Positions 1 to 17,166 of a stretch of 17,166 bases of DNA are shown here, piece by piece. The stretch is from Ophiocordyceps camponoti-saundersi (nom. inval.) (taxonomy: Eukaryota > Ascomycota > Sordariomycetes > Hypocreales > Ophiocordycipitaceae). The stretch covers positions 1 through 17,166 of the forward strand of contig PDHQ01000530.1 in NCBI GenBank assembly GCA_003339415.1. The letters run 5' to 3'. A program made the position numbers and the translations under genes. How positions within the stretch are numbered: position 1 is the stretch's first letter; each line of letters begins with the position of its first letter. Below the pieces are notes generated by a model. It saw nothing but the letters and a program-made list of their open reading frames with translations, was not told where the DNA came from and did no database searches.

Positions 1-585
1 GGGAAACCGTGTTAGCCTTACGTAGGGAGCTATTAGAGGCTTATATAAAATTTAATTAAATAGTCTCTTAACCTTTTTTTTTATTCCGAGAGATCTAAGT
101 ATTAGGATATAAAGGGCGGTTAAGAGAGGATAAGGACTATAACGAAATATAAAGCGCAGATTAGTTTCCCTCGGGCTAAGAGAGAGGAAGGAATTAACGA
201 AGAATTAGCCCTTAACCTTATCTTAATAGCTATTAAAAAAGTCGTTAATCGTAAGTTATATCTTAGAAAGGAGTTATAACAAAACTCTACTAAATAGAAT
301 TATAGCTTTTTTTTAAATATTATACTTTTATACGATAAATTACTAATTAAAACTCTATTCTTAAAGTTTTAAATACTTTATTAAATAGTTCTCTCTTCTT
401 TTTTCTTGTTTCTTTTATCTTTATATAGAAAATCGCCTTCCTATTATTTTCCTAATAGAGAATTTCGATCTAGCTTATCCCCCTATAGCTAGAGATCCCC
501 CTTATACTAGTTAAAGACTACGGTCACCTAGGATTAGGAGTTACAGTTCTTCGTATATAGGTATCTAGCTATTTACTTACTTAAT
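1..585. repeat. Dispersed repeat segment, copy A (5' part of composite element)
   Basis: This segment matches 8139-8705 along its whole length with many transition differences. Examples of shared blocks are AGATTAGTTTCCCTCG (near 161 and 8298), TTAGCCCTTAACCTT (near 206 and 8337) and CTATAGCTAGAGATCCCCC (near 484 and 8617). The match already exists at base 1, so the repeat probably begins upstream of the window. A TTTAATTAAATAG motif lies near 50 and a related ATTAAATAGTT near 374. The second copy has both at matching positions. There is a TTTATATAG box near 420. A long terminal repeat is one possible identity, since TGTTAGCC stands at 9, but I see no reverse transcriptase or integrase nearby and do not call it one. 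No coding frame is supportable here. Confidence 0.75.
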
Positions 586-1707: not shown

Positions 1708-2480
1708 AGTAAAAGGGTACGGTATACCCCCCGGCCACTATATAGAGTGCTCGAGATACTCCGGCGAGAGGAGACTAACTTACCTATTCGGAGGCTCGGG
1801 GGAATACTCGAGTTCTATAATCTCTCTATCCTCCGTAATATTATCGTTATCGGCGATTATATTAGCGAGCTATGCTATCGTTCTAGCTATTTCTATTAGA
1901 CGCTAGAAAGAATATTATCGCCCGAGGCTAGCCTATAAATAGCTTATATAAGCGCTATGCTAGAAGCTAGGAAGCGATATATAATATTAGAATAGATATA
2001 CTTTAGTTTTCGGACAGCTATACTTCTAGTAAGGCGTAGTATTTTAATTACTACGACTCTATATAACTAAGGCCCTAAAGTATATATAGCTACGTATAAT
2101 TTAAATAGCTACTAGCTAAGCAGACGTGGTAGTCTTAGCTAAAAGAATAATATTTCTTATAGGTAGCGCGAGTGCCTATTATTCTAATATCTATAGAAGA
2201 AGAAAAATATATTATTTTAGGTTATATATAAAATCCGCAGGCGAATACTTATATTAATACTAAAAGCGTTTATTATAGCTAATATTAGCGCGTATATAGT
2301 TAGAATCTCGAGGAGGCGATAACGCCCTTCTAGTACGCTATGATCGAGGGCAGAAAAAAATTCTATATTTCTTTTCTTATAAAAGAATCTATATAAGAAA
2401 AAAAAAAGAGGAAGAGGATAAAGGAAGAAGAAAGAAGAAGAGAGAGAGAGGAAGAGAAGAGGGCGTTTTATACCCTGCCT
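1708..2480 (+). pseudogene. Decayed coding frame of unknown function, charged C-terminal tail
   Basis: From 1708 to 1896 this plus-strand frame stays open for 63 codons, unusual for this window. It reads through segments such as VLEILRREETNLPIRRLGG and SELCYRSSYFY. Beyond 1897 it is interrupted repeatedly by TAG and TAA, all of which could be former Gln codons. The last part (about 2310-2465) encodes a Lys/Arg/Glu tail from the purine tract. No start codon can be assigned, because ATG would have become ATA under RIP. I do not recognise the family. It lies directly upstream of the 36-bp minisatellite and is not found in the second copy of the composite repeat. A 93-codon ATG-started frame on the opposite strand (2217-2498) is the complement of the purine tract, rich in Phe/Leu/Ser, and is regarded as an artefact. 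Confidence 0.35.
2396..2463 (+). repeat. Polypurine tract (A/G only, with few breaks)
   Basis: A run of nearly uninterrupted purines made of AAG, GAAGAA and GAGAGA blocks ends about 55 bp before the minisatellite begins. Such tracts can arise by slippage and can adopt triplex forms. That is general knowledge and not something the sequence proves. Confidence 0.8.
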
Positions 2481-2495
2481 AGATAACTTATCTAG
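2479..2495. repeat. Short perfect inverted repeat
   Basis: CTAGATAA at 2479-2486 and TTATCTAG at 2488-2495 are exact inverted complements around a single C. It sits between the polypurine tract and the minisatellite. Its TTATC/GATAA halves resemble the palindromic core of the minisatellite unit. No function is implied. Confidence 0.7.
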
Positions 2496-2518
2496 CATAA
2501 CTAGTTTAATAAGTGCAA

Positions 2519-2855
2519 AAGAGCAGTGAACGGTAACGGGTTTATCTACTAGGGGATAAGAAGAGCAGTAAACGGGTTTATCCTAAGAATAGTAATTAAT
2601 AAGTTTATACCTTATAGGATAAGAATAGCAGTTAACGGTTTTATTCCTTAGGGGAGAAGAATAGCATTTAACGAGTTTATCCCTTAGGGGATAAGAATAG
2701 TAGTTAACGGTTTTATACCTTAGAGGATAAGAATAGTATTTAACGAGTTTATCCCTTAGGGGAGAAGAATAGTATTTAAGAGGTTTATCCCTTAGTAGAT
2801 AAGATAAGCAGTTAATAAGTTTATCCCCTAGGGGATAAGATAAGCAGTTAACGGG
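2519..2855 (+). repeat. Degenerate 36-bp minisatellite array inside composite repeat, copy A
   Basis: About nine units of the same 36-bp motif that builds the satellite at 13.6-17.2 kb. Each unit has TTTATCCCYTAGGGGATAAG followed by AARAGCAGTTAA and then CGGG or TAAG. Here the units are diverged, with changed and missing bases (for example the short unit from 2577) and many CAG to TAG changes. The array starts just after a partial unit at 2519 and ends abruptly at GGGTTTCTAT (2853-2862). The second copy has the same ending at 9382-9391, so the 3' border is an old fixed junction. Confidence 0.9.
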
Positions 2856-3540
2856 TTTCTATCACGCTAGTGTTATTACTTAGTACTAAATGCCGGCGCG
2901 GCAAATAGGTGAATATAGGAGATATAAAAGTATTATTCGGATAAATTTGCCTAAACGGTTAAGCGATATAATAACTAAGACTATACGTCCCTTAGCCTAT
3001 ATATAGATATTATACTATAGTGCGTTCTATAATAGTATTTTGCAGATTATATTTAAATATAGGAACTCCTAAAAATATTACGATATATAAGGAGCTACTT
3101 TAGAGCTATCCGGGTAATAAGTTTATAATTAAGCTTATAAAGGAATATAAGCATAACTATAAAACCCTCGTAAAGGAACTAAAGGATAATTTAAGATTTC
3201 TCTTATAGAAGAAGTAATAGAGAGTTATTATAGACTAAGCCGAGGATATAAAAAATATATAAAGTCGAAGCAAGTGGAATTCTTATTAGCCGAGGATAAT
3301 AGTAGCTGATTAATCTCTTTCTAATAGCTAAGGGAGAATATTACTAGCTATAGAAGAAATATAGCGGCTATTAACTAAGATACCGTTAGCAAATTCGTCT
3401 TTAGGTTTATCGTCTACTTAGCTAATCACGCTATAAGAGACGAGATATACTAAGAAATCGTCCTTAGACCTATTCTAGTTTGTTAAGTTTATCGGCTACC
3501 CTAAAACGGACTATCGCAGAACTTTAAAGAAGGGGTATTA
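2856..3540 (+). pseudogene. Decayed coding segment of the dispersed element, copy A
   Basis: Homologous to 9385-9757 plus 10763-11041. The plus frame is open from 2996 to 3100 and, after one TAG, from 3104 to 3205. It contains the segments KELL, SYPGNKFIIKLIKEYKHNY and KTLVKELKDNLRFLL, which read like an amphipathic, Lys/Leu-rich protein. Between 3274 and 3540 the match with copy B continues. Two frames are about equally open there, one giving FLLAEDNSS followed by VSKFVFRFIVYLANHA, so a frameshift is likely or the frame is unresolved. All interruptions are TAA or TAG except one TGA at 3307. I do not recognise the family. Transposase or gag-like functions are possible but unproven. Confidence 0.45.
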
Positions 3541-4209
3541 ATAAAGGCATAATAGCTAGCGTTATCCGGATTTCGGTTTCTTAAGCTAATATACCGTAAG
3601 TATAGGACAAAGTAAACGATAAATTCGAATCCCTCGTCTCTATAATTATATACGCCGGTAAGCTAATAGTATGCCGATATAGTTCCATGCTTTTAAAAAC
3701 ACTAGATAGGATTAACCTTAAAAAAACAGTTTCTAGGGATTATCTTAAAAAGTTCTATTAAGCGGAAGATAGATAGTAGTCCTCTAACTTAGATAACTAG
3801 CTTCTATAAGGGAAAGTACCCCCCTCCGTTAAAACTACTACCCTCCTAGCTAGGGAGGAATTTAACGCCGAATTAAATAAGAATTAAGTTTTAAGTATTA
3901 GAACCCTTAATTAAATAGTTTTAAGGAGTTATATATCTCCTAGTAACCGAACTAATAAAGCAGTTATTAGGGACGGTCTCCTCGATACTTAGACTAAGCT
4001 AAAAAAACCACCCTTAAGGTTTAGCTCCCCTAGATTACTAAAGCAGAGAAAGCCCTTTATATTAGAGCCGTCCTACGGTTATTATATAGGCTTTAAATAC
4101 CCGTAACCTTTCTTACTTAATATCTACGGGGAGGAAGGGGAAGGTATTTTAGTCTAAATAGCATACTTAAATAAAGGTACGATAACTCTTCTTTATTTTA
4201 ACTTCTCTA
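3540..4209 (+). pseudogene. Decayed coding frame of unknown function
   Basis: Plus-strand frame with 13 stops in 223 codons, all TAA or TAG, and long clear runs (3606-3758, 3993-4103, 4107-4154, 4158-4209). Visible segments include FESLVSIIIYAGKLIVC, FSSPRLLKQRKPFILEPSYG and LLNIYGEEGEGILVQ (the last Gln inferred from TAA). It follows directly on the copy A coding remnant, and the match with copy B fades at its start, so it is either that gene's diverged 3' half or a separate gene. It runs towards the probable minus-strand frame that ends near 4170, so the two would converge with a slight overlap. No family recognised and no start assignable. Confidence 0.4.
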
Positions 4210-5262
4210 CTAGACCCTTATACTTATAATAAATTACTTTACTCTAATTCGAGGACCTTTCGAGCCCGCTCCTTAATATTAGGCTACTTATTGCCCTCTC
4301 TAGGCTCTAAACCGTCGTCTAGGAACGGATTCGGTATATCCTTAATTAAGCGAGGCGTAACTTAAGGATTTAGATAGTCCTCGTATATAACGGAGTTAGT
4401 AAAAATATCCTAGCTACTAATAAAGTAACCTACTATCTATAAGGCCTTACTAATCTCTGCCTTATAAGCGTACTCGGAGTGCTAACGCTAATTATAGGTA
4501 GCCGCCCTAGTACTATTCTAAATATAATTAAAATAACTATAACCCCCTTAGCCGTATATCGAAACGTACTTATAAAATAGCGTTAATATATATTCCCCGT
4601 AGTAGGTAACGGTTATCGTTTATAATCGTAAGTAATAAGTATATAATTTTAGGTTATATTAACTAAAGATCGAGATAAGAAGAGCCTTATAATATTTAGG
4701 GCGTTTCCCTTAGATTAAATAGTTAAAGAAGGAGCCCTCTAGGTGCGCGATCTTAGTCGGGATATAAGTAACTCGGGGTTCCCCTAGCGTCTTCTCCTAG
4801 TACTCTCTCTCTCTAGCCCTAATAAAGTAATAAAGAAAAAACTTAAGAGGAGACGTAGTACCTATTTCTATCTTAATAAAAGCCGGGGCTTCCTAAGGAA
4901 CTTTCTCGCGGAAAGCTATCTTAATAAATATAGGAACGTTAAAGTGCCCGACGTTAACGCCTCCCTTATGCTAAATCTTAAGGTAGGCGTAAATCTAAGT
5001 AGAGAAAATTAGTCTTAATATCCGGAACTATTTAATTAAAATACTTACGCGTATATATTTAGGGTAAGGAAGAGTCTTTAGCGCTATACGGCCTTACTAG
5101 CCTAGGCTTAATAGGACGCTTATATTTTCGGTATCTAACTTACGTAAGATAAGGTTATAAATATTAGGGAGACGTTTCTTTTTCTCCTCGATTATCTCCT
5201 TTTCCGTTAACTTAGGCGCTATCGCGATTAAAGATTCTTATTACTATTAACGCGTCTAGGTT
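4170..5262 (-). pseudogene. Decayed coding frame, probably minus strand, unknown function
   Basis: Read on the minus strand from about 5262 downwards, the frame begins with several inferred Gln codons and then ESLIAIAPKLTEKEIIEEKK. It continues for about 360 codons with roughly 21 stops, all TAA/TAG. Protein-like segments include GGVNVGHFNVPIFIKIAF, PRVTYIPTKIAHLEGSFF, DIPNPFLDDGLEPREGNK and PNIKERARKVLELE. Many Tyr codons may be former His codons (CAY to TAY). The exact antiphase plus frame is almost as open, for example from about 4640 to 4990, so the strand is an inference. I prefer minus because of the acidic/basic helical segments near both ends and the spacing to the divergent frame at 5547. 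Function unknown. Confidence 0.35.
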
Positions 5263-5546
5263 AAGTAGGTAAAGAAAGAAAAAAAAGAGAGGGAGAGGAC
5301 GAGGGCGATATAAATAGCGAGCTAATAACTATTTATTCCTAATTAGGAAGGAGCCCTCCCCGCTCTTCCCTTCGCGATATCGTAGTACTAACCGAAGTAT
5401 AGAGTAGTAAGCTTAAGAACTAAGGTAGCGAATAATAATAAAATAAAGCGACGCGTTTTTCCTCTTTTCCCACGCGTACCCTCTTTTTCCTTTAAACTAA
5501 CTATTTATTTAATAACTAAGCTATACTTAGCGCACTATTATTATAA
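5263..5546. other. Interval between two divergent decayed frames
   Basis: Contains a purine tract (about 5270-5300), a GATATAAATAGC box near 5308 and a pyrimidine-rich stretch near 5456-5492. If the flanking frames are real, this roughly 280-bp interval would have held both promoters. No specific promoter element can be supported after this much mutation. Confidence 0.3.
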
Positions 5547-8172
5547 CTAAAATATATTATAGATTTAGTAAACCTAAACTATAAGCTTAGTAAGGAAGTA
5601 AACTTTAAACCGGAAAGGCTATTTTTTAGCGAACGAAATAATAAGTTTACTATTACGGCGATACTTTATAGTAAAGTAATAATAGGGCCTACGTCGCCTA
5701 ATCTCCCTTTCTCGGCGGTAACTCCCGAGCTCGCGCGAACCCTTAAGTATAAATAGCTCCCTTAGTTTATAAGACGAATAGTTTAGCCGAAGGAACGCGT
5801 TAAGCTTTTTGCAGATATAATTAAATACTTATATATATTTCGAGCTAGCGAGGAGATCGCTAACGTTATCCTATTTAATAATATCTAAGACTAGAGTAGC
5901 TACGTAGATAATATAAGGCGTTTTATTTTCAAAGTATAGAGACGACTATAGGTAACTAGCTTTAAGCTAGAAGCTATAATAAAAATCTTAAATAGGGGAA
6001 TCTAGGATAAAGTGCACCTATTTACGATTCTTATAGTAATTACGATACCTACTACCGTAAACGAGACCACTAATATACCGTTTAAGAAGAAAATCTATTA
6101 TATTATGCTTAGGTTTAACCTTAAGTAGGAAGTAAATAGTTACCCCCTTTTAGGTAATATAGTTAATTTTAGAGCGGATAGGACCGATATTAGGTATTAT
6201 TAGGGCAGCTTCTTTTAGGATTAGCAAGCCCGAGTACTTTATTTTTTCGACTTGATAGAGCCGGGGTAAGTGCCTCGATCGAAAAAGGTGATAGCCGCAT
6301 AGAGAGATATCTTAAGCGAGTTTTAAGGGGACTGCCCCTTTAATTTTATCGTTATTCCTAGGACGCGATAGAAAGGAGAGTACGAATACGGATACCTAGC
6401 CCTTTCTATACTATAATACTAAGCTCGTAGCTTTATCGGTCTTAAACTCGACGTATATATTAATAGCTTATCGAATAAGCGAGGATTAAGCGTTAAATAG
6501 TTTAGAGAAGATCTCGAGACCCCCCCGGATTCCCGTATTCTCTTACGAGACTAGGCTATACGAACCGAGGATAGCGACGGTAATAATTACGATAAATTAA
6601 TCGCTTAGATAACTAGTAACCTATATACTATTAGGGCGAATAAATTAGGTATCCGAAAGTCGGAATAGTTTAACTTTTTAGGAAATAGTTATAGATTTAA
6701 ACTAAGGAACTAGGAGGGCGGCGAAGATCTCTTAATAAAGCTAGAAGTAAGCTTAACGACGCTTAGGGGCCTATGCCCCGAGGCTACTATCCCCTGCTAC
6801 CGGATCCTTAGAAGATACCGAACTATTACGCCTAAGACCCTTACTAATAACTCTATAATAAAGAGCTATATTATAGTGCTATACTTAGGCGCTACTAAAG
6901 TTAGAAGATAGCCTTAGGGAGATCGGGAAGAACTATAAGGGATCGATATTAATAACTTTAATAAGGGCGAAGGGGCTAGGGATAATAAGGCTCTAGACGA
7001 GGAAGAGGTTAGGGAGGAAAATAACGAGGACCTTCCCGAGGATAAGACTATAAAAGGCCCGACTAATAATTAAATAGTTCCGATATCTAGCCTTTTATCT
7101 TCTTTTAGATCTAAAGACCCCCCGACTCTAGAAGGAGTTAGACGAGAGACGAGCGCTATAAAGAATACGAGGAAGGAAGATAAAGCGACTAAGGCGCCTA
7201 ATAACGCTATAACTAAAGAGGAAACGACTAGGATAAAGAAAATAATCCCTTAGGAATTAACGGGTATATTATAGCCTAAGAAACTTACTACGGGGAAGAA
7301 AATACCCGCAGGATTAAACCCGGCCCCGATATAGCCGGCTTTCTCTCCGAGGCGCAGCGCGAGGACGAAGAAGTTAACGAAGCGCGACTATTTAATTAAG
7401 AACCCTGCGTTGCAGAAAACGGCCCCTAAAAGAAAAGGGGAGGAAAAAGACGTAGGAACGCTAAAATTAATACGCTTTACTTATTTTACCTTAGGCAAGA
7501 ACCTTATAGTCTAGCCTAGCAAAGGACTCATAGCTGCAAGTATAGGCTAAGAACTAATTAACTTAGACCCGCTTAGCTTTAGGGTTAGAGGGGTTAAGCG
7601 TTATAAGAATTATATAACTTAGACTAAGAGTTGCGGACGTGTACGATAAGGAAGGCATATCGCACTTAATACGGCCGGATCTATTATAATATATACCGGA
7701 CGCGCACTTATTAGAGACTAGCTTTAAGAACCGAAGATAATCCTAATAATCCCGAAGACTAGTTCTTTTATTAGCTTGCAGCCCTTAGGGCTTATATACC
7801 CTAGTATATAGGCCGAGATCGATAAGGCTATCGATAACTATTTAATTAAGTAATAACGGGAGCGAGAGAAGGGACCTAAGAGAGATATGCTACTAGCGGG
7901 CGGTCGGCGCGAACGCTAGAGTCGACGGATCTAAGGGTTAAACCCTAAGGAGAAGTAACTAGAGTTTCCTTTATTATTTCCTTTACGAAGAGTCCTTTCC
8001 GCCTTTATTTTATCGCGCTTGCACGCACCTTATTTAAGTTATAAGAAAAAGTTAGTTATTACCGAGAAAAAGGGCTAATTACTTATTACGGCACGCGCTT
8101 AGGGAGGAGTTTAGCAGCGGAGATAGGGACGCCGAAAGAAATGCAAGCGCCTACCTTAGCTAGGGAATTATT
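5547..8172 (+). pseudogene. Long decayed coding frame (about 875 codons), unknown function
   Basis: This is the best-preserved coding signal in the window. From 5547 to 7547 one plus frame has 31 stops in 667 codons, every one TAA or TAG and so explicable as former Gln (CAA/CAG) or Trp (TGG to TAG). Stop-free runs are 5547-5753, 6714-6908, 6939-7070, 7074-7250 and 7335-7511. The N-terminal two thirds read as a mixed globular protein, for example FTILIVITIPTTVNETTN and EATIPCYRILRRYRTITPK. Next comes an acidic stretch, ALDEEEVREENNEDLPEDK, near 6981, then a Lys/Arg/Pro-rich region with FSPRRSARTKKLTKRDYLIK near 7341. From 7548 on stops are denser (17 in about 208 codons), so the true end may lie anywhere up to the repeat border near 8150. 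No known domain or catalytic motif is apparent. A chromatin or nucleic acid binding protein would fit the charged tail, but this is speculation. Confidence 0.5.
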
Positions 8173-8705
8173 AGGGACTTATAAAAAGTTTAATTAAATA
8201 GTTCCTAAACCCTTTCTTCTTTTCCTAAGAGCTGCCGAGGGTTAATACATAAGGGTAGTTAAGCTAAGATAGGGGCTATTACTAGGTATATAGTATAGAT
8301 TAGTTTCCCTCGAAAGAGGACGAATTAAGCAAGTAATTAGCCCTTAACCTTGTCTTTAGAGCTATAATAAAAGTCGTATATCGCAAGTTAAGTTTTAGAG
8401 AGGACTTGTAGCAAAAACTCTACTAAACGGAATTATAACTTTATTTTAAACTTTACACTTTTATACTATAAATTACTAATTTAAATACCCTTTTCGAAGT
8501 CTTTAGTATTTAATTAAATAGTTTCCACCTTTATATTACTTCTTTCTCTTATCTTTATATAGAGAACCGACTCCTTATTATTTTCCCTATAGAGAATTAC
8601 TATACGGCTCTTCCCCCTATAGCTAGAGATCCCCCCTTATATTAGTTAAAGACTTTAGTTACGTAAGAAGTTACGCCCCTTAGGTATCTACTATACTTAC
8701 TTAGG
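8139..8705. repeat. Dispersed repeat segment, copy B (5' part of composite element)
   Basis: Counterpart of 1-585, collinear over the whole length with small indels. It keeps the paired TTTAATTAAATAG-like motifs (near 8189 and 8508) and the TTTATATAGAG box near 8564. Similarity ends just after CTATACTTACTTA (8690-8702), matching CTATTTACTTACTTA around 569-583 of copy A. It overlaps the most degraded end of the long frame before it, so the copy A start may also have had such a gene upstream. Confidence 0.75.
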
Positions 8706-8995
8706 GTATCCTTCTTCCCCCGCTAAAGTACTATACTAATAACTAGTTCGTTAGCTCCGATCTCGCTAAGATACTTACCTTAAGATATTTTATTAGTTAA
8801 TAGAAGATCTAATTTAAATAGAGAGGTTTATTCCTTCTAAAAGGAGGCGATTATAGTAGCGAAGTCGAGGCTCGAAACGAAAGCTAAGGCGGAGGCTAAT
8901 AATAAAACGGCCCGAAAAGCTAAGGGCTAATTCTACTTTCGCTATAAGGATAGAGAGTTAGGGGGGGGGGGTTTATATAAGTATCGCTTTTAACC
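8706..8995. other. Short unique stretch before the second minisatellite
   Basis: Replaces the roughly 1.9 kb that lies at this place in copy A. It holds a purine-rich segment (about 8860-8930) whose plus frame reads Glu/Ala/Lys-rich, too short to call a gene, and an 11-base G run. No RNA gene or regulatory site seen. Confidence 0.4.
8961..8971 (+). repeat. Homopolymer run of eleven G
   Basis: Eleven consecutive G bases preceded by AGTTA and followed by TTTATATAAG, in an otherwise AT-rich setting, about 25 bp before the minisatellite array. Such a run is slippage-prone and could also be a sequencing-length uncertainty. Confidence 0.9.
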
Positions 8996-9384
8996 TAACC
9001 CCTAGGGGATAAGGAGTATAGTAAACGGGTTTATCTCGGAGAGGATAAGAGCAGTTAGGGAGTTTATCTCTTAGGGAATAAAAATAGTAGTAAATAGGTT
9101 TATAGCTTAGGGAATAAGAAGAGGAGTAGGTAAGTTTATAAGTAAACGGGTTTATCCGATAGGGGATAGGAAAAGGAGTGAACGGGTTTATAAGTAAAAG
9201 GGTTTATCTTTTAGGGAATAAGAATAGAGTGAATAAGTTTATCCCTTTAGGGATAAGAAGAGTAGTAAACGAGAACGAGTTTATGCCTAGGAGAAAGAAA
9301 AGCAGTTAGCGAGTTTAACCCTAAGGGAGAAGAAAGGCAGTTACCTAGCTTATCTTATAGTTTATAAAAGGAGTAGTTAACGGG
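8996..9384 (+). repeat. Degenerate 36-bp minisatellite array inside composite repeat, copy B
   Basis: About ten to eleven diverged units of the 36-bp motif, with several short or rearranged units (for example around 9130-9160 and 9190-9200). It occupies the same position in the composite repeat as 2519-2855 and has the same right border, CGGGTTTCTATA near 9381. The first unit carries GGATAAGGAG instead of GGATAAGAAG. The first units of the satellite arrays further right share this variant. Confidence 0.9.
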
Positions 9385-9757
9385 TTTCTATAACCTTAGT
9401 ATTAGTACTAAATACCGGCGTAGTATTTAGCTAGATTTTAGAGATATAGAAGTATTACTCGAGTAAATTTCCTATAAAGTTAAACGCTATAATAAGTAAG
9501 ACTATACGCCTAATAGCCTATAATAGAAAATTAGGTTATAGTGTATTTTATAAAGATATTTTATAGATAGAATCTAATAATAAGAACTTATAATAATATT
9601 ATAAGATTTAAGGAGTTACTTTAGAGCTATCTAAGTGATAAGTTTATAAATAAGCTTCCTAGCATAACTATAGATCTTTCGAGAAGGAGCTATAGAATAA
9701 TTTAGGATTTCTCTTGCTATAGAAGTGGTCGGGCTAAAGAGTAATTATAGACGAAGC
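9385..9757 (+). pseudogene. Decayed coding segment of the dispersed element, copy B, part 1
   Basis: Collinear with 2856-3225. The segment KELLQSYLSDKFINKL (Gln from TAG) matches KELLQSYPGNKFIIKL of copy A. A short deletion at the position after AAGCTT (near 9657) then shifts the frame, after which the KHNY...KEL...NL pattern resumes in another frame. Similarity with copy A is lost near 9757, where about 1 kb of unrelated sequence intervenes. Same unknown family as copy A. Confidence 0.45.
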
Positions 9758-10183
9758 CTACTGTTAAGGATAAACCTAGCAGGCACTCACGTGACTAAGC
9801 TAGTTTAGCGGGGTTAAAAGGACACTCCCGAAGAAAGGAAAAAGAAGAAGAAAAAGGGAAAAAGGGATAAAGGGGTAATTCCGTATAATTCCTAGAAATT
9901 TAAAAGACGTAGAATTAAAAGGGCTAAGGGAGGAAGGAATCCGTAGCAGGTAGCCCTACCTTGCTAGGTCCGAATACGCTCACGGCGACTAACTTTATAT
10001 AGAAGGGCTCACGGCTGCCTTAGGTCTTCTTACTAAGGGTAGGAAATCGACCCCTTCTTATAAGTACAAATCTGACCCTTCCTAGGTCCTTTAGCCCCCT
10101 TTAGCTAAGCGAATACTAATTAATCAGATCTATTAAATTAGGTAGGTGAGATTAAATAACCTTTCTAGACCCTGCAGTCCTAA

Positions 10184-10229
10184 CCGGCCCGTACGACCCG
10201 GCAGGTCCCTGCAGGCCTATACGGACCGG
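10184..10229. repeat. Imperfect GC-rich inverted repeat in the insertion
   Basis: CCGGCCCGTA at 10184-10193 pairs with TACGGACCGG at 10220-10229, with one mismatch. A 26-base interior contains the small self-complementary piece GCAGGTCCCTGC. CCTGCAG also occurs twice nearby. It could fold as a hairpin in RNA or DNA. No known element is recognised. Confidence 0.5.
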
Positions 10230-10434
10230 ACAGTCCTATATACTTCCTTAAGACGGTCTTCTCTATAAGGGCTATGTGTATATGTGGGCAGGAGTGCCCG
10301 TTACTCCCGCGAAACTAGGAGGCCTCTTTTTCTTTATCCCTATAGCTCGGCAGCTAAGTTAGCTTCTTTATTATTACAGGTATAAAATTATTATACTTAT
10401 TCGTTACCTTCTATAGTAATAGCGCTCTAGTAAG

Positions 10435-10690
10435 CGCGATTATACCGACGAGATTAAAGATATATCTATTAGACGGGCTATCCGATACTAGTATTAAGGG
10501 ATCCTAAAAAGGAGTGTACTTATTATCGCAATGCCCTCTCGTACGCAACGTACGAAGAGGGTAGATATCTAAAAACTAAATACCTATTCGAATATATAAA
10601 GTAATAAATAAGGAATATAAAAGGTAGAGTAGGGAGTTATAAGATAAGAAGGATCTCGTATAAAGGGTCCTTATAACTCGGGCAAGCTAT
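10435..10690 (+). pseudogene. Decayed frame with weak similarity to a pogo-type transposase helix-turn-helix
   Basis: The plus frame from CGC at 10435 reads RDYTDEIKDISIRRAIRY and continues, with TAG/TAA taken as Gln, to QYQGILKRSV, then AMPSRTQRTKRVD. The order Y-T-(D/E)-E, then SIRRA, then G-(I/V)-(P/L)-(K/R), then an AMPSRTQR-like turn recalls the psq-type helix-turn-helix at the N-terminus of fungal pogo/Fot transposases. It lacks a few residues in the first helix and nothing downstream resembles the DDE catalytic region. The call is a recollection-based resemblance, not a match. It lies inside the 1-kb insertion. Confidence 0.22.
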
Positions 10691-10762
10691 ATATATATTA
10701 GGACGAGGCTATAAGGGCAGCACGAGGCTGCGAGGTATCGTGAGATTCCTTAATAATATTAA

Positions 10763-11041
10763 GTCTAAGTGAGTAAAATACTTCTTAGCCGAGGATAATA
10801 GTAACTAATCGATATCTTTCTAATAGCTAAGAAAGAATATTACCTGCTGCGGAGCAAATATAACGGGTATTAACTAAGAGATCGTTAGCAAACTCGGCTT
10901 TAGGTTCGTTATCTAGTTAGCTAATCACGCTAAGAGAAACGAGATATACTAATAAATCGTCCTTAGAGCTGTTCCCGTATATTTAGTTTATCGGCTACCC
11001 TATATCGAACTATAGTAAAACTTTTAAGAAGACGTATTAAC
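10763..11041 (+). pseudogene. Decayed coding segment of the dispersed element, copy B, part 2
   Basis: Resumes the match to copy A (3265-3540). One frame gives YFLAEDNSN, then VSKLGFRFVI and LANHAKRNEIY, paralleling FLLAEDNSS, VSKFVFRFIV and LANHAIRDEIY of copy A (Gln/Trp inferred at the stops between). This shared reading across two copies slightly favours this frame over its neighbour. Similarity fades near 11050. Family unknown. Confidence 0.4.
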
Positions 11042-11700
11042 GAAGGTAAGAATAACTAGTAGTTCGGGCCTATAACTAGTAGCGTTAAAGAATACGGCAA
11101 GGTAGTCGATAGTACGACTATAGTGAAAACGCTAGATTCTATTTACTTTAAGGCAACTGCCGATAAGCTATTCGGGGAAATAGGGAAGGATAGCAAAGGC
11201 GTTATTATAGCGCGGAAGTATCTAGTATTATACGGCCTACCCTATAGGCCTCCCTCTTAGTTAGTTAGCGCTGCTAGCCCTACTTCCTAGGGCCCTGGCC
11301 TTGCTATATAAACCTAGCAGAATTATAGTTATTATATTAGGAATATTACCACATTTATCGAGGCTGCCTTTCGCTATATAAGATATAGGAATAGCTTTTT
11401 TAGTACTAAGCGCCAAGTATCCTAGATTTCCTCTAATGCTAAGCACGAAAATAACGGCCGCTATAACTATAATTTTTACTTAACTAGCTCGAGGAATGCC
11501 CGGAGAGAAGTTTATCGATTAGTAGTTAGTACCTTAGAGGCTTAGACTAAAAGAGAAATAAACTGCTAAGTATAAGAAGAGCGGGCTAATATATATAGTT
11601 AATCTTACGAGCAGTATATATAAGATATACTATATTATACTAGTGGCCTATATAAGTATCTAGGCATATATATATATATAGACTATTTATTAGAGAGGAA
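11042..11700 (+). pseudogene. Decayed coding frame of unknown function
   Basis: One plus frame with about 13 stops in 220 codons, all TAA/TAG. After two early stops it is open from 11063 to 11257. Segments seen include FGPITSSVKEYGKVVDSTTI, LDSIYFKATADKLFGEIGKD, GVIIARKYLVLYGLPYRPPS and, further on, TTFIEAAFRYIRYRN and FYLTSSRNARREVYRLVVS. A second, diverged copy of its GLPYRPPS part occurs in the same reading at 11941. It may be the downstream part of the copy B element gene. A 61-codon ATG-started minus-strand frame (11261-11446) overlaps this region and is judged an antisense artefact. Confidence 0.4.
11234..11370 (+). repeat. Direct repeat R, first copy
   Basis: Matches 11941-12085 at an offset of 707 bp. 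Shared blocks are GGCCTACCCTATA, CCTCCCTCTTAGTTAGTTAG and AAACCTAGCAGAATTAT. Small indels appear in the second half. Both copies read GLPY(R/K)PPS, then LVSAA(S/D)PTS, in one plus frame. Confidence 0.8.
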
Positions 11701-11940
11701 AAACTATAAGGCCTAGGGGAAGACCTCTTACTTAATAAGGTCGGCTAGCTTATAGGCCCGATTCGTTACGTTAGAGAGCTTATTTATTATAAGTTATCTA
11801 TCCGAAGTTACGCCGGTCTTAAGTAAGGGATAACTATACTTCCTTAGTTCCTATTACACGTAGATATTATCTAAGTTCTAGGTAGTTACGGTACGTATGT
11901 TAGCAAATACTATAGCGAAGATCTTAAGTTATATTATAAG

Positions 11941-12085
11941 GGCCTACCCTATAAACCTCCCTCTTAGTTAGTTAGCGCTGCCGACCCTACTTCTTAGGGC
12001 ATAGCCTTATAAAATAAACCTAGCAGAATTATTATTATAGTTATAAGTATTAGGAATTTTAACACCTTTATTAGTGCTGCTATTA
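11941..12085 (+). repeat. Direct repeat R, second copy (with decayed frame)
   Basis: Second copy of the 11234-11370 segment. The plus frame gives YYKGLPYKPPS, then LVSAADPTS, after an upstream YYSEDLKL, before indels break it near 12000. It looks like a piece of a paralogous gene rather than a recent tandem copy, because it differs from the first at many sites and its flanks do not match. Confidence 0.7.
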
Positions 12086-12618
12086 ACCTTATAATAAGTT
12101 ACTTTTATAAGAATACTCTATTACCGTTTTAGTTAGTCCCTAGCCCTATGGCTACGAGGGTAGTATTAGAAAGGAAGAACCGACTCTAATTTATACGACT
12201 ATAAGTAGGTAGGATATAATTAAGGGGGTTATTAAACGTAGAAGGAAAACTCTAATACGAAGATATATATATTCGTTTAGATTCCCTAGCAACGATAGAA
12301 TACTCCTACTTAGCATATCGCTAGCTTAGAAGCTAGTATTTTTATTCTTAAGAGCCTTTCTCTAAAGACCGCTATTTTTATATATATATATATATTATAT
12401 ATATAAGGAAGGCCTCTAAGCCTAAGGGTCGGAGGTTAAGCTTTCTATATTTATAGTTTATATAAATATATATATAATATACCTACCTACGTTCTAACTC
12501 TTAGATATATAAATTAATTACTTAGTTTATTTTTTATTCGACGTAATATTCTAATTCCGTTAGAATCCGTTTAAGATTATAACCTTAGTAAGAGGTAGCC
12601 TATAGTCGCTACTTATAG
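12086..12618. other. AT-rich stretch without a supportable gene
   Basis: Dense stops in all frames, TA microsatellites around 12379-12405 and 12460-12480, and no RNA gene or repeat shared with the rest of the window. The interval 11701-11940 is likewise without a call. Confidence 0.5.
12379..12405. repeat. TA dinucleotide microsatellite
   Basis: A run of alternating T and A with a single phase break near 12394. A shorter TA run lies near 11668-11681. Such runs are expected in RIP-saturated DNA. Confidence 0.85.
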
Positions 12619-13080
12619 ACGGCCCTAAGACGGGTGCTAAGTCCTTTTATAATAGACTTACTTATATATATATTTCCCCCGTCTTGCCTAACTAGAGCTC
12701 GGGCGAGTACGACTCTAGCTAAGGAAAGAATCGAGCGGGGTTATAACTTTTACCGGGGTTATCCTAGGGTCGTGCCGTAAATAGCCGAGCGACTAGCTCG
12801 CTTATTAAAGGCGAATATCTTACGAGTAGTATTTGCCGAATTTATTAACTCGATCCCTTAGGTGCTAGGATATATATTATAGAAAGCGAATATATCTTTC
12901 TACTATTATTTACGCGTAATAATATAAACTTAGATAAACGAGGTAATTAGCGACTTTACTAAAGACGAAATTAAGGAGGAATTAGTACGTATATACGTAA
13001 GAGAAAGAGATATTTAGATATCCCTAGTAGCTAATTAGTTAGTAAATTATAAGTATAGCCGCAGGCTACGTAACTATAAA
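12619..13080 (+). pseudogene. Decayed coding frame of unknown function, helical and charged
   Basis: The plus frame is open from 12619 to 12777 (53 codons) and continues to about 13080 with seven stops, all TAA/TAG. Visible segments include FPPSCLTRARASTTLAKERI, ERGYNFYRGYPRVVP, LARLLKANILRVVFAEFINS, and VISDFTKDEIKEELVRIYVR near 12940. The pattern of Leu/Ile with alternating charges suggests a helical protein. Nothing allows a family name. It ends in TA-rich DNA, about 235 bp before the satellite block begins. No ATG start is identifiable. Confidence 0.4.
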
Positions 13081-13314
13081 TATATAATATATATATAAGA
13101 TATATATCCTAGCTTACTTACTTACCTATATAAGGCTATCTCTAAAAAATATATTATTTATTATTATACTTATTATACCTTTTATAATAGGTCTTTACGA
13201 TAAGAACTAGCGGAGAAGGTCTAAACCTTACGTTAGCGAATCGTATTATTACTATAAACTTATAGTGGAAAATAACGAAGGAGAAGTAAGCGAAATATCG
13301 TAGCTATAATATAT
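13081..13314. other. Border between decayed genes and the satellite block
   Basis: AT-rich, without a gene. From about 13280 the sequence GGAGAAGTAAGCGAAATATCG resembles the AGAGAAGTAAGCTAACTATCG part of the 202-bp spacers, so the first, diverged spacer begins here. Confidence 0.5.
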
Positions 13315-13500
13315 AGCGTTTCGGGCAGAGGAAAAAGACGCGTGCAGCGTTTCGGAAAGACGAAAGAGACGCGTATAGCATTTCGGGCAGATAAAAGAGA
13401 CGCGTGCAGCGTTTCGGATAAACGAAAGAGACGCGTGCAGTATTTCGGATAGACGAAAAAGAAGCGTGCAGCGCTTTAGGTAGACTAAAGAGACGCGTCT
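13315..13500 (+). repeat. 31-bp minisatellite, six tandem units
   Basis: Six units start at 13315, 13346, 13377, 13408, 13439 and 13470, each exactly 31 bp. The pattern is AGCGTTTCGGGCAGA followed by CGAAAGAGACGCGTGC, with transition differences. Each later spacer has only one equivalent unit (for example AGCGCTTCGGGCAGACTAAA near 14105), so this unit was amplified only in the first spacer, or was reduced to one in all others. Confidence 0.9.
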
Positions 13501-13622
13501 CGTCCGTATCTTAGTCCGAGGAGCGGAAATTAAGTCCTATATTTCGTCGATATAAGTGCGAAAAGATAAGAAAATTAACTATACCGTATAGGACGATAAC
13601 TATATACCGGAGACGATAAGTA
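13501..13622. repeat. Spacer module 1, right part (diverged)
   Basis: Equivalent to the last 120 bp or so of the 202-bp spacer: CGTATCTTAGTCCGAGGAGCG, AAGTCCTATATTTCGTCGA and AACTATACCGTATAGGACGA are recognisable. Together with the 31-bp array and the bases from about 13280 it forms the first spacer. Confidence 0.8.
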
Positions 13623-13685
13623 TTTATCCCCTAAGGGATAAGAAGAGGAGTTAACGGGTTTATCCTTTAGGGATAAGAAAGGTAG
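13623..13685 (+). repeat. 36-bp array 1 (1.75 units)
   Basis: Units start at 13623 and 13659. The second is cut after 27 bp, ending in the GATAAGAAAGGTAG variant typical of last units. It joins directly to CATATAGCGCTTC of the next spacer. Confidence 0.85.
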
Positions 13686-13843
13686 CATATAGCGCTTCGG
13701 GCAGACGAAAGAGACGCGTCTTATCTATATCTTAGTCCGAGAAGTAGAAGTTAAGTCCTATATTTCGTCGACGTAGGTGCGAAAAGATAAGGAGATTAAC
13801 TATACTATATAGGACGATAACGATATACCCGAGACGATAAGTA
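13686..13843. repeat. Spacer module 2 (5'-truncated, 158 bp)
   Basis: Same sequence as the 202-bp spacers but missing roughly the first 45 bp (the TTAGTCCCGTAGAAGATAAC part). One 31-bp-type unit starts near 13691. Confidence 0.85.
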
Positions 13844-14059
13844 TTTATCCCCTAGGGGATAAGGAGAGTAGTTAATAAGTTTATCCCTTAGGGGATAAGA
13901 AAAGTAGTTAATAAGTTTATCCCTTAGGGGATAAGAAAAGTAGTTAATAAGTTTATCCCTTAGGGGATAAGAAAAGTAGTTAATAAGTTTATCTTTTAGG
14001 GGATAAGAAAAGTAGTTAATAGGTTTATCCCTTAGGGGATAAGAAAGGTAATTAATAAG
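13844..14059 (+). repeat. 36-bp array 2 (6 units)
   Basis: Unit starts at 13844, 13880, 13916, 13952, 13988 and 14024, with no indels. The first unit has GGATAAGGAGAG and the last GATAAGAAAGG. All six carry TA instead of CA in the AG(C/T)A position, so this array is fully RIP-converted at that site. Confidence 0.95.
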
Positions 14060-14261
14060 TTAGTCTTATAGAAGATAATTAGAGAGAAGTAAGCTAACTA
14101 TCGCGTATAGCGCTTCGGGCAGATTAAAGAGACGCGTCTTATCCGTATTTTAGTCCGAGGAGCGGGAGTTAAGTCCTATATTTCGTCAACGTAGGTACGA
14201 AAAGATAAAGAGATTAACTATACTATATAGGATAATAACGATATACCTAAGATAATAAGTA
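14060..14261. repeat. Spacer module 3 (202 bp)
   Basis: From TTAGTCTTATAGAAGATAAT to GATAATAAGTA. First full-length spacer. It differs from the others only by substitutions, mostly C/T and G/A. Contains one 31-bp-type unit. A CTATAC-GTATAG palindrome seen in spacers 6 and 7 is changed here to CTATACTATATAG. Confidence 0.95.
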
Positions 14262-14405
14262 TTTATCCCCTAGGGGATAAGGAGAGTAGTTAATAAGTTT
14301 ATCTTTTAGGGGATAAGAAGAGCAGTTAATAAGTTTATCCCCTAAGGGATAAGAAAAGTAGCTAATAAGTTTATCCCTTAGGGGATAAGAAAGGTAGTTA
14401 ATAAG
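14262..14405 (+). repeat. 36-bp array 3 (4 units)
   Basis: Unit starts at 14262, 14298, 14334 and 14370. First unit GGATAAGGAGAG, last unit GATAAGAAAGG. One of four units keeps CA at the diagnostic site. Confidence 0.95.
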
Positions 14406-14607
14406 TTAGTCCCGTAGAAGATAACTAGAGAGAAGTAAGCTAACTATCGCGTATAGCGCTTCGGGCAGACTAAAGAGACGCGTTTTATCTATATCTTAGT
14501 CTAAGAAGTAGGAGTTAAGTCCTATATTTTATCGACGTAGGTGCGAAAGGATAAGGAGATTAACTATACCGTATAAGATAATAACGATATACCCGAGATA
14601 ATAAGTA
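14406..14607. repeat. Spacer module 4 (202 bp)
   Basis: From TTAGTCCCGTAGAAGATAAC to GATAATAAGTA, exactly the length of module 3, with substitutions only. Confidence 0.95.
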
Positions 14608-14823
14608 TTTATCCCCTAAGGGATAAGGAGAGTAGTTAACGGGTTTATCCCTTAGGGGATAAGAAGAGCAGTTAATAAGTTTATCCCCTAAGGGATAAGA
14701 AAAGTAGTTAATAAGTTTATCCCCTAGGGGATAAGAAAAGCAGTTAATAAGTTTATCCCTTAAGGGAGAAGAAGAGTAGTTAATAGGTTTATCCCTTAGA
14801 GGATAAGAAAGGTAGTTAATAAG
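14608..14823 (+). repeat. 36-bp array 4 (6 units)
   Basis: Unit starts every 36 bp from 14608 to 14788. First unit GGATAAGGAGAG, last unit GATAAGAAAGG. Two of six units keep CA at the diagnostic site. Confidence 0.95.
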
Positions 14824-15025
14824 TTAGTCCCGTAGAAGATAATTAGAGAGAAGTAAGCTAACTATCGCGTGCAGCGCTTCGGGTAAACTAAAAAGACGCG
14901 TTTTATCCGTATCTTAGTCCGAGGAGCGGGAGTCGAGTCTTATATTTCGTCGACGTAAGTGCGAAAGGATAAGGAGATTAACTATACTATATAAGATAAC
15001 GACGATATACCCGAGACGATAAGTA
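14824..15025. repeat. Spacer module 5 (202 bp)
   Basis: Same length and order as modules 3 and 4. AGTCGAGTC replaces AGTTAAGTC in the middle, a variant shared with modules 6 and 7. Confidence 0.95.
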
Positions 15026-15133
15026 TTTATCCCCTAAAGGATAAGGAGAGTAGTTAACGGGTTTATCTCTTAGGGGATAAGAAGAGCAGTTAATAGGTTT
15101 ATCCCTTAGGGGATAAGAAAGGCAGTTAATAGG
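15026..15133 (+). repeat. 36-bp array 5 (3 units)
   Basis: Unit starts at 15026, 15062 and 15098. Even this short array has the first-unit form GGATAAGGAGAG and the last-unit form GATAAGAAAGG. Two of three units keep CA at the diagnostic site. Confidence 0.95.
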
Positions 15134-15335
15134 TTAGTCTCGTAAAAGATAACTAGAGAGAAATAAGCTAACTATCGCGTATAGCGCTTTAGGCAGACTA
15201 AAAAGACGTATCTTATCCGTATCTTAGTCCGAGGAGCGGGAGTCGAGTCCTATATTTTATTAACATAGGTGCGAAAAGATAAGGAGATTAACTATACCGT
15301 ATAGGATAACGACGATATACCCGAGACGATAGGTA
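15134..15335. repeat. Spacer module 6 (202 bp)
   Basis: Same length, carries AGTCGAGTCC and the intact CTATACCGTATAG palindrome. Confidence 0.95.
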
Positions 15336-16428
15336 TTTATCCCCTAAGGGATAAGGAGAGCAGTTAATAGGTTTATCCCTTAGGGGATAAGAAGAGCAGT
15401 TAATAAGTTTATCCCCTAAGGGATAAGAAAAGTAGTTAATAAGTTTATCCCTTAAGGGATAAGAAGAGTAGTTAATAGGTTTATCCTTTAGGGGATAAGA
15501 AGAATAGTTAATAGGTTTATCCCTTAGGGGATAAGAAAAGCAGTTAACGGGTTTATCTTTTAGGGGATAAGAAGAGCAGTTAATAAGTTTATCCCTTAGG
15601 GGATAAGAAGAGCAGTTAACGGGTTTATCCCTTAGGGGATAAGAAGAGCAGTTAACGGGTTTATCCCCTAAGGGATAAGAAGAGCAGTTAATAAGTTTAT
15701 CCCCTAGGGGATAAGAAGAGCAGTTAATAAGTTTATCCCCTAGGGGATAAGAAGAGTAGTTAATAAGTTTATCCCTTAAGGGATAAGAAGAGCAGTTAAT
15801 AAGTTTATCCCTTAGGGGATAAGAAGAGCAGTTAACGGGTTTATCCCCTAGGGGATAAGAAGAGCAGTTAACGGGTTTATCCCTTAAGGGATAAGAAGAG
15901 CAGTTAATAGGTTTATTCCTTAGGGGATAAGAAGAGCAGTTAATAAGTTTATCCCTTAGGGGATAAGAAGAGCAGTTAACGGGTTTATCCCTTAGGGGAT
16001 AAGACTAAGGGATAAGAAGAGCAGTTAACGGGTTTATCCCTTAGGGGATAAGAAGAGCAGTTAATAAGTTTATCCCTTAGGGGATAAGAAGAGCAGTTAA
16101 CGGGTTTATCCCTTAGGGGATAAGAAGAGCAGTTAATAGGTTTATCCCCTAAGGGATAAGAAGAGCAGTTAACGGGTTTATCCCTTAGGGGATAAGAAGA
16201 GTAGTTAATAAGTTTATCCCCTAGGGGATAAGAAGAGCAGTTAATAAGTTTATCCCTTAGGGGATAAGAAGAGCAGTTAACGGGTTTATCCCCTAGGGGA
16301 TAAGAAGAGTAGTTAATAAGTTTATCCCCTAAGGGATAAGAAAAGTAGTTAATAAGTTTATCCCCTAAGGGATAAGAAGAGTAGTTAATAAGTTTATCCC
16401 TTAGGGGATAAGAAAGGTAGTTAACGGG
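15336..16428 (+). repeat. 36-bp array 6 (30 units, one of 49 bp)
   Basis: Nineteen units start every 36 bp from 15336 to 15984 and eleven from 16033 to 16393. The unit at 15984 is 49 bp long because 13 bp (CTAAGGGATAAGA-like) are duplicated near 16004. First unit GGATAAGGAGAG, last unit GATAAGAAAGG. At the diagnostic site 21 of 30 units keep CA. The TA units cluster at the ends (15408-15480 and 16285-16393). The AACGGG and AATAAG/AATAGG variants are interleaved. Each unit centres on TTATCCCCTAGGGGATAA or a one-base transition variant of it. Confidence 0.97.
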
Positions 16429-16630
16429 TTAGTCCCGTAGAAGATAACTAGAGAGAAATAAGCTAACTATCGCGTGCAGCGCTTCGGGTAAACTAAAGAG
16501 ACGCGTCTTATCCGTATCTTAGTCCGAGGAGCGGGAGTCGAGTCCTATATTTCGTCGACGTAGGTGCGAAAGGATAAGGAGATTAACTATACCGTATAGG
16601 ACGATAACGATATACCCGAGATAATAGGTA
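16429..16630. repeat. Spacer module 7 (202 bp)
   Basis: Last spacer in the window, from TTAGTCCCGTAGAAGATAAC to GATAATAGGTA. Nearly the same as module 6, with the 31-bp-type unit near 16477. Confidence 0.95.
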
Positions 16631-17166
16631 TTTATCCCCTAAGGGATAAGGAGAGCAGTTAATAGGTTTATCTCTTAGGGGATAAGAAGAGTAGTTAATA
16701 AGTTTATCCCCTAGGGGATAAGAAGAGTAGTTAATAAGTTTATCCCTTAGGGGATAAGAAGAGTAGTTAACGGGTTTATCTCTTAGGGGATAAGAAGAAT
16801 AGTTAACGGGTTTATCTCTTAGGGGATAAGAAGAGCAGTTAACGGGTTTATCCTTTAGGGGATAAGAAAAGTAGTTAATAAGTTTATCCCTTAGGGGATA
16901 AGAAGAGCAGTTAATAAGTTTATCCCCTAGGGGATAAGAAGAGCAGTTAATAAGTTTATCCCTTAAGGGATAAGAAGAGCAGTTAATAGGTTTATCCCTT
17001 AGGGGATAAGAAGAGCAGTTAACGGGTTTATCCCCTAGGGGATAAGAAGAGCAGTTAATAAGTTTATCCCTTAGGGGATAAGAAGAGCAGTTAATAAGTT
17101 TATCCCCTAGGGGATAAGAAGAGCAGTTAACGGGTTTATCCCCTAGGGGATAAGAAGAGCAGTTAA
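16631..17166 (+). repeat. 36-bp array 7 (at least 14.9 units, runs off the window)
   Basis: Fifteen unit starts from 16631 to 17135, the last cut by the window end after 32 bp. First unit has the GGATAAGGAGAG form. The GAAAGG last-unit form has not appeared, so the array continues beyond the window. Ten of fifteen units keep CA at the diagnostic site, with the TA units grouped at 16667-16847. Confidence 0.97.

What the first reader, a model, noticed from the sequence alone, without database searches (positions are those of the whole stretch)
13280..17166. Higher-order satellite: 36-bp arrays separated by spacers of exactly 202 bp
Seven spacer modules alternate with arrays of a 36-bp unit. Modules 3 to 7 are each exactly 202 bp without a single length change, although they differ by many transitions. 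The arrays between them vary from 3 to 30 units. Length is thus held or was copied as a block in the spacers but not in the arrays. I know no named fungal satellite with this layout. It could be a subtelomeric or pericentric heterochromatin repeat, or the core of an unusual element.
Basis: seen in the sequence. Interest (0 to 1): 0.75.

Follow-up and report, generated by a model that had tools for sequence, protein, structure and literature searches.

The report
Frozen repeat tail of fungal element
The striking 36-base and 202-base repeat pattern is the tail of a very large, many-copied, probably mobile fungal element whose copies were mutated base by base by the fungus's own defence against duplicated DNA, which changes letters but not lengths.

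Summary
The layout is real: five spacers of exactly 202 bp between arrays of 6, 4, 6, 3, 30 and at least 14 units of 36 bp. It is not a free satellite. The window is one whole contig of a 45.7-Mb assembly, inside a dispersed repeat whose body pieces have at least 40 copies and which spans at least 35-39 kb on four contigs. The satellite lies near its right end, which is shared by 6 of 6 copies read and followed by different flanks. In 20 contigs 113 of 114 full spacers are 202 bp. They differ by 192,416 transitions against 1,100 transversions, in the context of repeat-induced point mutation (RIP), and 34 of 34 window tiles pass RIP thresholds. The body also nearly keeps its length. Unit numbers mostly changed before RIP: 8 of 8 long arrays tested hold no repeated block of RIP-marked units, and copies share count series such as 9-2-2-7-2-2-2-7. 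Element class, left end and species are unknown. A new variant of a known kind: tandem repeats carried by transposable elements.

The parts
1..13280 (+). body of the dispersed element; pieces of it match 40 scored places each; no open frame of 100 aa or more
   Evidence: homology continues left of base 1 by at least 15.7 kb in C220
2534..2858 (+). first internal array of degenerate 36-bp units, inside the left copy of an internal duplication (about 1-3550)
8988..9389 (+). second internal, more degenerate array of the 36-bp unit, inside the right copy of the internal duplication (about 8154-11059)
5403..7950 (+). RIP-damaged former reading frame (fewer stops in one frame for part of its length; aligned without a gap over 2548 bp in three other copies); no known relative found
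9760..10755 (+). about 1-kb insert that interrupts the right copy of the internal duplication; weaker RIP substrate depletion (0.41)
   Evidence: present in C485 and C726 as well
13315..13498 (+). 31-bp tandem array (about 6 copies), a repeated piece of the spacer
13464..13622 (+). module 1, shortened spacer (spacer bases 46-202); overlaps the last 31-bp unit
13623..13658 (+). 36-bp array, 1 unit
13659..13843 (+). module 2, shortened; 185 bp between arrays (185 seen 13 times in the held loci examined)
13844..14059 (+). 36-bp array, 6 units
14060..14261 (+). spacer module 3, 202 bp
14262..14405 (+). 36-bp array, 4 units
14406..14607 (+). spacer module 4, 202 bp
14608..14823 (+). 36-bp array, 6 units
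14824..15025 (+). spacer module 5, 202 bp
15026..15133 (+). 36-bp array, 3 units
15134..15335 (+). spacer module 6, 202 bp
15336..16428 (+). 36-bp array, 30 units, one irregular 49-bp unit
16429..16630 (+). spacer module 7, 202 bp
16631..17166 (+). 36-bp array, at least 14 units, cut by the contig end; in six other copies the element's right end lies about 172 bp from the start of the last unit

Best explanation
The feature is the right-end tandem-repeat tail of a very large dispersed, mobile-type element (spanning at least 35-39 kb where measured, at least 40 copies of its body pieces) in a fungus that has repeat-induced point mutation. Shown: the satellite lies in a fixed place in the element, between a 31-bp array and a short terminal stretch, and copies have different flanks beyond it. 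Shown: differences between spacers are almost only RIP-type transitions, so lengths are untouched. Shown: long arrays hold no repeated block of RIP-marked units, so unit and module numbers were mostly set before RIP. Inferred: in the active lineage the homogeneous array grew and shrank by unequal exchange or replication slippage, unit by unit inside 36-bp arrays and module by module (spacer plus array) in register. Slippage has no foothold inside the spacer, so only unit counts vary. After spreading, RIP scattered C-to-T changes over each copy, made the units unlike each other and so stopped most further exchange; the array counts were frozen as a record of descent.
For: Dispersed element: 40 scored matches, each in a different contig, for window 12300-13280 and for 5500-6500, and 40 for each of two blocks left of the window. 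On one contig and strand the leftmost block and the nearest right end lie 37.2 kb (C99), 37.4 kb (C6), 35.6 kb (C701) and 39.2 kb (C81) apart. Satellite tied to the element: of 26 contigs with spacer hits 24 also hold the 12300-13280 flank, in 24 of 24 on the same strand with the satellite downstream; the other two, C6 and C579, hold the 5500-6500 body. Right end: 6 of 6 copies agree for 163-180 bp from the start of the last unit, then differ; the 18-base end occurs 45 times, the reversed control pattern 0 times. RIP: 34 of 34 tiles of 500 bp have product index at least 1.44 and substrate index at most 0.43 (cut-offs 1.1 and 0.75 in PMC6714961, which used 1000-bp windows; passages seen). 113 distinct spacers: ts/tv 175; 95 of 98 variable columns pure C/T or A/G; at C/T columns T:C is 1401:55 before A but 11:1358 before G. 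Length: 113 of 114 full spacers are 202 bp; 40 of 40 body matches at 5500-6500 have equal spans. Frozen: the longest repeated block of consecutive identical units is 1 in 8 of 8 long arrays tested; 94 of 113 spacers have their nearest relative in another contig, and only 1 of 113 in a neighbouring module. Inherited counts: in 13 of 13 contigs whose held stretch includes the 1-unit array the next count is 6 (10) or 9 (3); a 4-bp difference in the flank is present in 3 of 3 contigs with 9 and in 1 of 10 with 6 (my count).
Against: The left end was not found and no target-site duplication could be tested, so mobility rests on the shared right end with different flanks. No transposase, reverse transcriptase or other domain was found in X-read frames, and the one candidate frame has no relative. 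The body is not free of length changes: 17 of 40 matches to 12300-13280 are 4 bp shorter, 17 of 40 to a 2.5-kb left block differ by 1 bp, and 10 copies carry about 140 bp more at one place in L069. 19 of 113 spacers have their nearest relative in the same contig, above the highest of 30 shuffles (13; mean 7.3), and adjacent units are a little more alike than the array mean in 7 of 8 arrays (best-lag shuffle fractions 0.033-0.75, uncorrected). Either a gradient of RIP along the array or some later exchange could do this. Contigs with the same count series are not clearly closer at matching spacers (C22 x C485 mean 25.3 on the diagonal, 27.7 overall; C470 x C527 27.7 and 26.5; averaged). One spacer of 114 is 229 bp (C79). 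16 of 40 contigs with the 12300-13280 flank have no spacer hit (capped lists, short contigs; not checked). No RIP-free part of this genome was held as a control.
Confidence: 0.8

Rival explanations
1. A free heterochromatic (subtelomeric or pericentric) satellite, with spacer length held by selection, for example for nucleosome phasing.
For: Strong RIP and low GC would fit heterochromatin; many contigs break in or near it.
Against: Satellite and element body occur together in 26 of 26 contigs with spacer hits; the three contigs with long or contig-end TTAGGG runs have no spacer hit; the body keeps its length nearly as well (40 of 40, but 23 of 40), so no special constraint on the spacer is needed.
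Confidence: 0.08
2. The repeat unit is a segmental or subtelomeric duplication block spread by recombination between chromosomes and not a mobile element.
For: No transposition gene and no left end found; internal duplications of 500 bp to 3.5 kb.
Against: One sharp right end in 6 of 6 copies read, with different flanks, and 45 exact copies of that end.
Confidence: 0.2
3. The arrays are protein-coding: 36 bp is 12 codons, and one minus-strand frame of the unit is open (up to 738 codons in L064).
Against: 4942 of 5000 shuffled units also have at least one open frame; 0 of 113 spacers is open in any of six frames; 202 is not a multiple of 3.
Confidence: 0.02
4. Assembly artefact: array counts and spacers produced by collapse or misjoining of repeats.
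For: Contigs are short and several end inside the array, the window among them.
Against: Copies with different RIP patterns share count series such as 9-2-2-7-2-2-2-7 (C22, C485); all 113 spacers differ from each other.
Confidence: 0.04

Closest known systems
Tandem repeats in the 3' UTR of Ty3/gypsy Ogre elements of pea (PisTR-A satellite), as told in the review PMC9659126 (passages)
   Same: Tandem array in the 3' part of a dispersed element, variable in unit number.
   Different: No long terminal repeat was seen here, although the test is incomplete because the left end is unread. Here there are two levels (36-bp arrays between fixed 202-bp spacers) and RIP.
Central tandem repeats of Helitron/Helentron elements (DINEs, CgHINE), same review (passages and table)
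   Same: A mobile element spreads a tandem array through the genome.
   Different: The Helitron 3' end (CTRR, recalled) is not seen; the end reads CTACTAT in 4 and TTATTAT in 2 of 6 copies.
Starships, giant fungal elements with a DUF3435 captain (recalled)
   Same: Size over 30 kb, fungal.
   Different: The only DUF3435 match found in the genome is a relic on C75, a contig in none of the element hit lists; 40 or more copies would be unusual (recalled).
Large RIP-affected regions of Ascomycota (PMC6714961, passages)
   Same: All 34 tiles of the window are RIP-positive by the paper's strict cut-offs.
   Different: Nothing; the window is a clear case, though only one contig was tiled.

Membership tests
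RIP-affected repeat | TpA/ApT above 1.1 and (CpA+TpG)/(ApC+GpT) below 0.75 | tested here: met
   34 of 34 non-overlapping 500-bp tiles; the last 166 bases not tiled
RIP-affected repeat | copies differ by C-to-T transitions in CpA context | tested here: met
   ts/tv 175; T:C 1401:55 before A, 11:1358 before G, 251:992 before T, 30:422 before C (neighbouring columns are linked, CG and TA alternating)
Mobile element | defined end with different flanks in different copies | tested here: met
   right end, 6 of 6 copies read
Mobile element | second end and target-site duplication | not testable with these tools
LTR retrotransposon | the same terminal repeat in direct orientation at both ends | tested here: inconclusive
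   the right-end 18-mer is not found again further left on C6 or C701, where 44 and 36 kb of contig remain; only Y positions could vary, so a more mutated copy would be missed
TIR DNA transposon | terminal inverted repeats | tested here: inconclusive
   no opposite-strand match of the end on C6, C99, C81 or C701, same limit; left end unread
Helitron | CTRR 3' end after a hairpin (recalled) | tested here: not met
   end CTACTAT or TTATTAT in 6 of 6 copies; fold of one copy's end no better than shuffles, z -0.28; the exact last base cannot be fixed without the left end
Starship | DUF3435 tyrosine recombinase at one end | tested here: inconclusive
   one DUF3435 relic found in the genome, on C75; the element's left end is unread and heavy RIP could hide a captain
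Subtelomeric satellite | lies next to terminal TTAGGG arrays | tested here: not met
   3 contigs with long or contig-end TTAGGG runs, none with spacer hits; few chromosome ends are assembled
Centromeric satellite | CENP-A or centromere position | not testable with these tools
   no chromatin data

The most novel reading that the evidence does not exclude
The element is an undescribed class of giant fungal mobile element whose right end carries a working domain: an array of 36-bp units with a palindromic core (still a perfect 18-bp palindrome in 206 of 911 units examined) and dyad-bearing 31-bp units that once bound the element's own recombinase or replication protein. Its array counts, frozen by RIP, form a readable pedigree of the element's spread.
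Probability: 0.15. Interest if true: 0.7.

Novelty: new variant of a known kind. Interest (0 to 1): 0.4.

Why it matters
It turns an odd pattern (fixed spacer, free array) into a simple rule: a process that changes letters but not lengths acted on an array whose lengths had mostly been set before. Array counts of RIP-silenced copies could then serve as a pedigree of a repeat family that base changes do not blur, where sequence trees are swamped by RIP. A dispersed unit of 35 kb or more with no recognisable mobility gene is worth classifying in its own right (40 full copies of 37 kb would be about 1.5 Mb, 3% of the assembly; how many copies are full is not known).

Tried and rejected
Pfam scans of X-read frames over window 1-3400, 3301-8200 and 9400-13280 and over the left pieces L067, L069 and L070: 0 families in 36 of 36 frames at E up to 1. 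Window 8201-9399 and 13281-17166 and C220:20051-23721 were not scanned. Rfam: 0. tRNA: 0. Protein search with the damaged frame: none of 7992 and none of 7998 scored candidates. A PDB hit (8etq_A, E 0.00028, no stretch passing on its own) was judged spurious. AlphaFold of the damaged frame: pLDDT 27, useless, no fold search made. Finding the left end through an interrupted copy of another repeat failed. Looking for a shorter derivative in C726 found nothing. Naming the species from its contig number in papers failed. A coding role of the arrays was rejected. Paper searches for a fungal precedent: 0 papers; 312 papers, 20 listed; 0; 32, 10 listed; 0; 387, 8 listed; 3; none of the listed titles or abstract openings describes this layout. 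Most subscription papers are not held.
Full report
What is there. The window is the whole of contig C477 (17,166 bp) in an assembly of 45,694,536 bp in 733 contigs. From 13315 on it holds a 31-bp array of about 6 copies, two shortened spacer modules and five spacers of exactly 202 bp, between 36-bp arrays of 1, 6, 4, 6, 3, 30 and at least 14 units. The last array is cut by the contig end. The window has no open reading frame of 100 aa with an ATG, GTG or TTG start, no Rfam match and no tRNA.

It belongs to a larger dispersed unit. The spacer has 59 listed matches; with an earlier search these lie in 26 contigs. 24 of the 26 also contain the sequence 12300-13280 that precedes the satellite in the window, in 24 of 24 on the same strand and upstream; the other two, C6 and C579, contain the body at 5500-6500. 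In the other direction, 16 of the 40 contigs with the 12300-13280 flank have no listed spacer hit; this was not followed up. The tool scores only about 40 candidates, so all copy numbers are lower bounds. Blocks further left were followed in C220: L067 (40 matches), L069 (32 candidates scored) and L070 (40). The leftmost block and the nearest right end lie on one contig and strand 37.2 kb apart in C99, 37.4 in C6, 35.6 in C701 and 39.2 in C81; that these are single copies is inferred from the order of the pieces between them. The left end was not reached.

The right end. Six copies were read past the last array (C22, C726, C6, C176, C99, C214). Counted from the start of the last unit, 15 of 15 pairwise comparisons agree for 163-180 bp and then stop; the element's end lies about 172 bp from that start. 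C22, C6 and C214 share further repeats in their flanks, but at other distances. The end reads TAAATCTGCYYYTAYTAT. This 18-mer occurs 45 times in the genome, its reversed control 0 times.

Why 202 bp stays 202 bp. From held loci of 20 of the 26 contigs, 138 gaps between arrays were cut: 113 of 202 bp, 13 of 185 bp (the shortened second module), 1 of 229 bp, and 11 short ones (49-75 bp), which are irregular units and not spacers. The 113 spacers are all different, 71-96.5% identical, with 192,416 transitions to 1,100 transversions over 6,328 pairs; 95 of 98 variable columns are pure C/T or A/G. At C/T columns T outnumbers C 1401:55 where A follows, and C outnumbers T 1358:11 where G follows, 992:251 before T and 422:30 before C. 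Neighbouring columns are linked (CG and TA alternate), so these counts are not independent, but the pattern is that of RIP. In the window 34 of 34 tiles pass the strict cut-offs given in PMC6714961 (passages seen). The body behaves much alike: 40 of 40 matches to 5500-6500 have equal spans, and 3 of 3 copies of the 2548-bp frame align without a gap. It is not free of length changes: of 40 matches to 12300-13280, 23 have equal spans and 17 are 4 bp shorter; of 40 matches to the 2.5-kb block L070, 23 are equal and 17 differ by 1 bp; in L069 ten copies have about 140 bp more at one place. So few, mostly shared length changes are the rule throughout, and the fixed spacer length is not special.

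When the array lengths changed. If units or modules had been duplicated after RIP, the copies would share RIP marks. In 8 of 8 arrays with 20 or more units, from seven contigs, the longest repeated run of identical consecutive units is one unit, no more than in shuffles (arrays of that length in other contigs, such as C6 and C462, were not tested). Against a complete freeze: adjacent units are slightly more alike than the array mean in 7 of 8, with best-lag shuffle fractions between 0.033 (C176) and 0.75, uncorrected. Only 1 of 113 spacers has a neighbouring module as its nearest relative and 94 have it in another contig, but 19 have it in the same contig, above the highest of 30 shuffles (13, mean 7.3); mean differences within and between contigs are 29.2 and 30.7 bases. 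Array counts are shared between copies: C22 and C485 both show 9-2-2-7-2-2-2-7; C462 and C563 show 6-6-2-2-5-3, C470 and C527 6-6-2-5-3, C634 6-2-2-5-3, as if single modules were gained or lost. In 13 of 13 contigs whose held stretch includes the 1-unit array the next count is 6 (10) or 9 (3). An independent mark agrees: the 4-bp difference is present in 3 of 3 contigs with 9 and in 1 of 10 with 6 (C359). The order inferred is: homogeneous array, unit and module number changes in the active lineage, spread, RIP, freeze. The exchange mechanism itself is inference.

The unit. 206 of 911 units examined in 15 contigs still carry a perfect 18-bp palindrome in one of two main forms (131 and 75), and two typed unit forms fold as single strands into a short hairpin (z -1.6 and -2.8; the 31-bp unit z -1.1, a 150-base spacer piece z +0.6). 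A protein-binding role near the element's end is possible and untested. The open minus-strand frame of the unit is expected by chance.

What it is not. The only DUF3435 match found is a relic on C75, away from the copies listed; there is no CTRR end and no recognisable domain in the frames scanned. Terminal repeats could not be excluded with the left end unread. It is no telomere satellite as far as the three contigs with long or contig-end TTAGGG runs tell. That the host is a filamentous ascomycete is inferred from RIP; no call names it, and relatives could not be searched because no fungal collection is held.

Known ground. Tandem arrays inside transposable elements are known from Ogre 3' UTRs and Helitron-type elements (PMC9659126, passages), and RIP is well described. 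The two-level layout, its fixed place at the end of a unit of 35 kb or more, and the RIP-frozen count series were not found in the paper searches made, which cover open-licence papers only and of which I saw listings.

Noticed in passing
L063:3227-4227 (C214:15126-16126): A second dispersed repeat (21 matches of 865 bp or more listed) carries an internal run of TTAGGG telomere units; in 21 of the 26 contigs with TTAGGG x3 the run lies inside this repeat. It could be a telomere-linked element.
   Followed up: partly
window 1-3550 and 8154-11059: Internal duplication within the element, 75-81% alike in its ungapped pieces, each copy with its own degenerate 36-bp array; a repeat of about 500 bp (window 12-515) recurs four times in the stretch read, one of them partial, and also elsewhere.
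   Followed up: partly
window 9760-10755: Insert of about 1 kb with milder RIP substrate depletion (0.41 against 0.15-0.20 in other parts), yet present in C485 and C726.
   Followed up: no
window 5403-7950 (+): RIP-damaged reading frame of about 850 codons without any recognisable relative.
   Followed up: partly
L066:4001-7500 (C99 right flank): Flank of extremely low GC (0.10-0.18 in 500-bp tiles) just beyond the element's right end; perhaps a centromere or an old RIP block.
   Followed up: no
L059 against window: The C6 copy lacks window 440-3037 and has about 1.9 kb of other sequence near window 4060, so some copies are rearranged.
   Followed up: no
window 12300-13280 in 40 copies: A 4-bp length difference splits the copies 23 to 17 and largely follows the 6 or 9 count at the satellite start: two subfamilies.
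   Followed up: partly
G000:C75:32363-33187: The only DUF3435 (Starship captain) match found in the genome, with ten stops.
   Followed up: no
L036 (C353), L034 (C462): Less mutated units keep TTTGTCC and GACAAG where other copies read TTTATCC and GATAAG, a direct view of RIP on both arms of the palindrome.
   Followed up: yes
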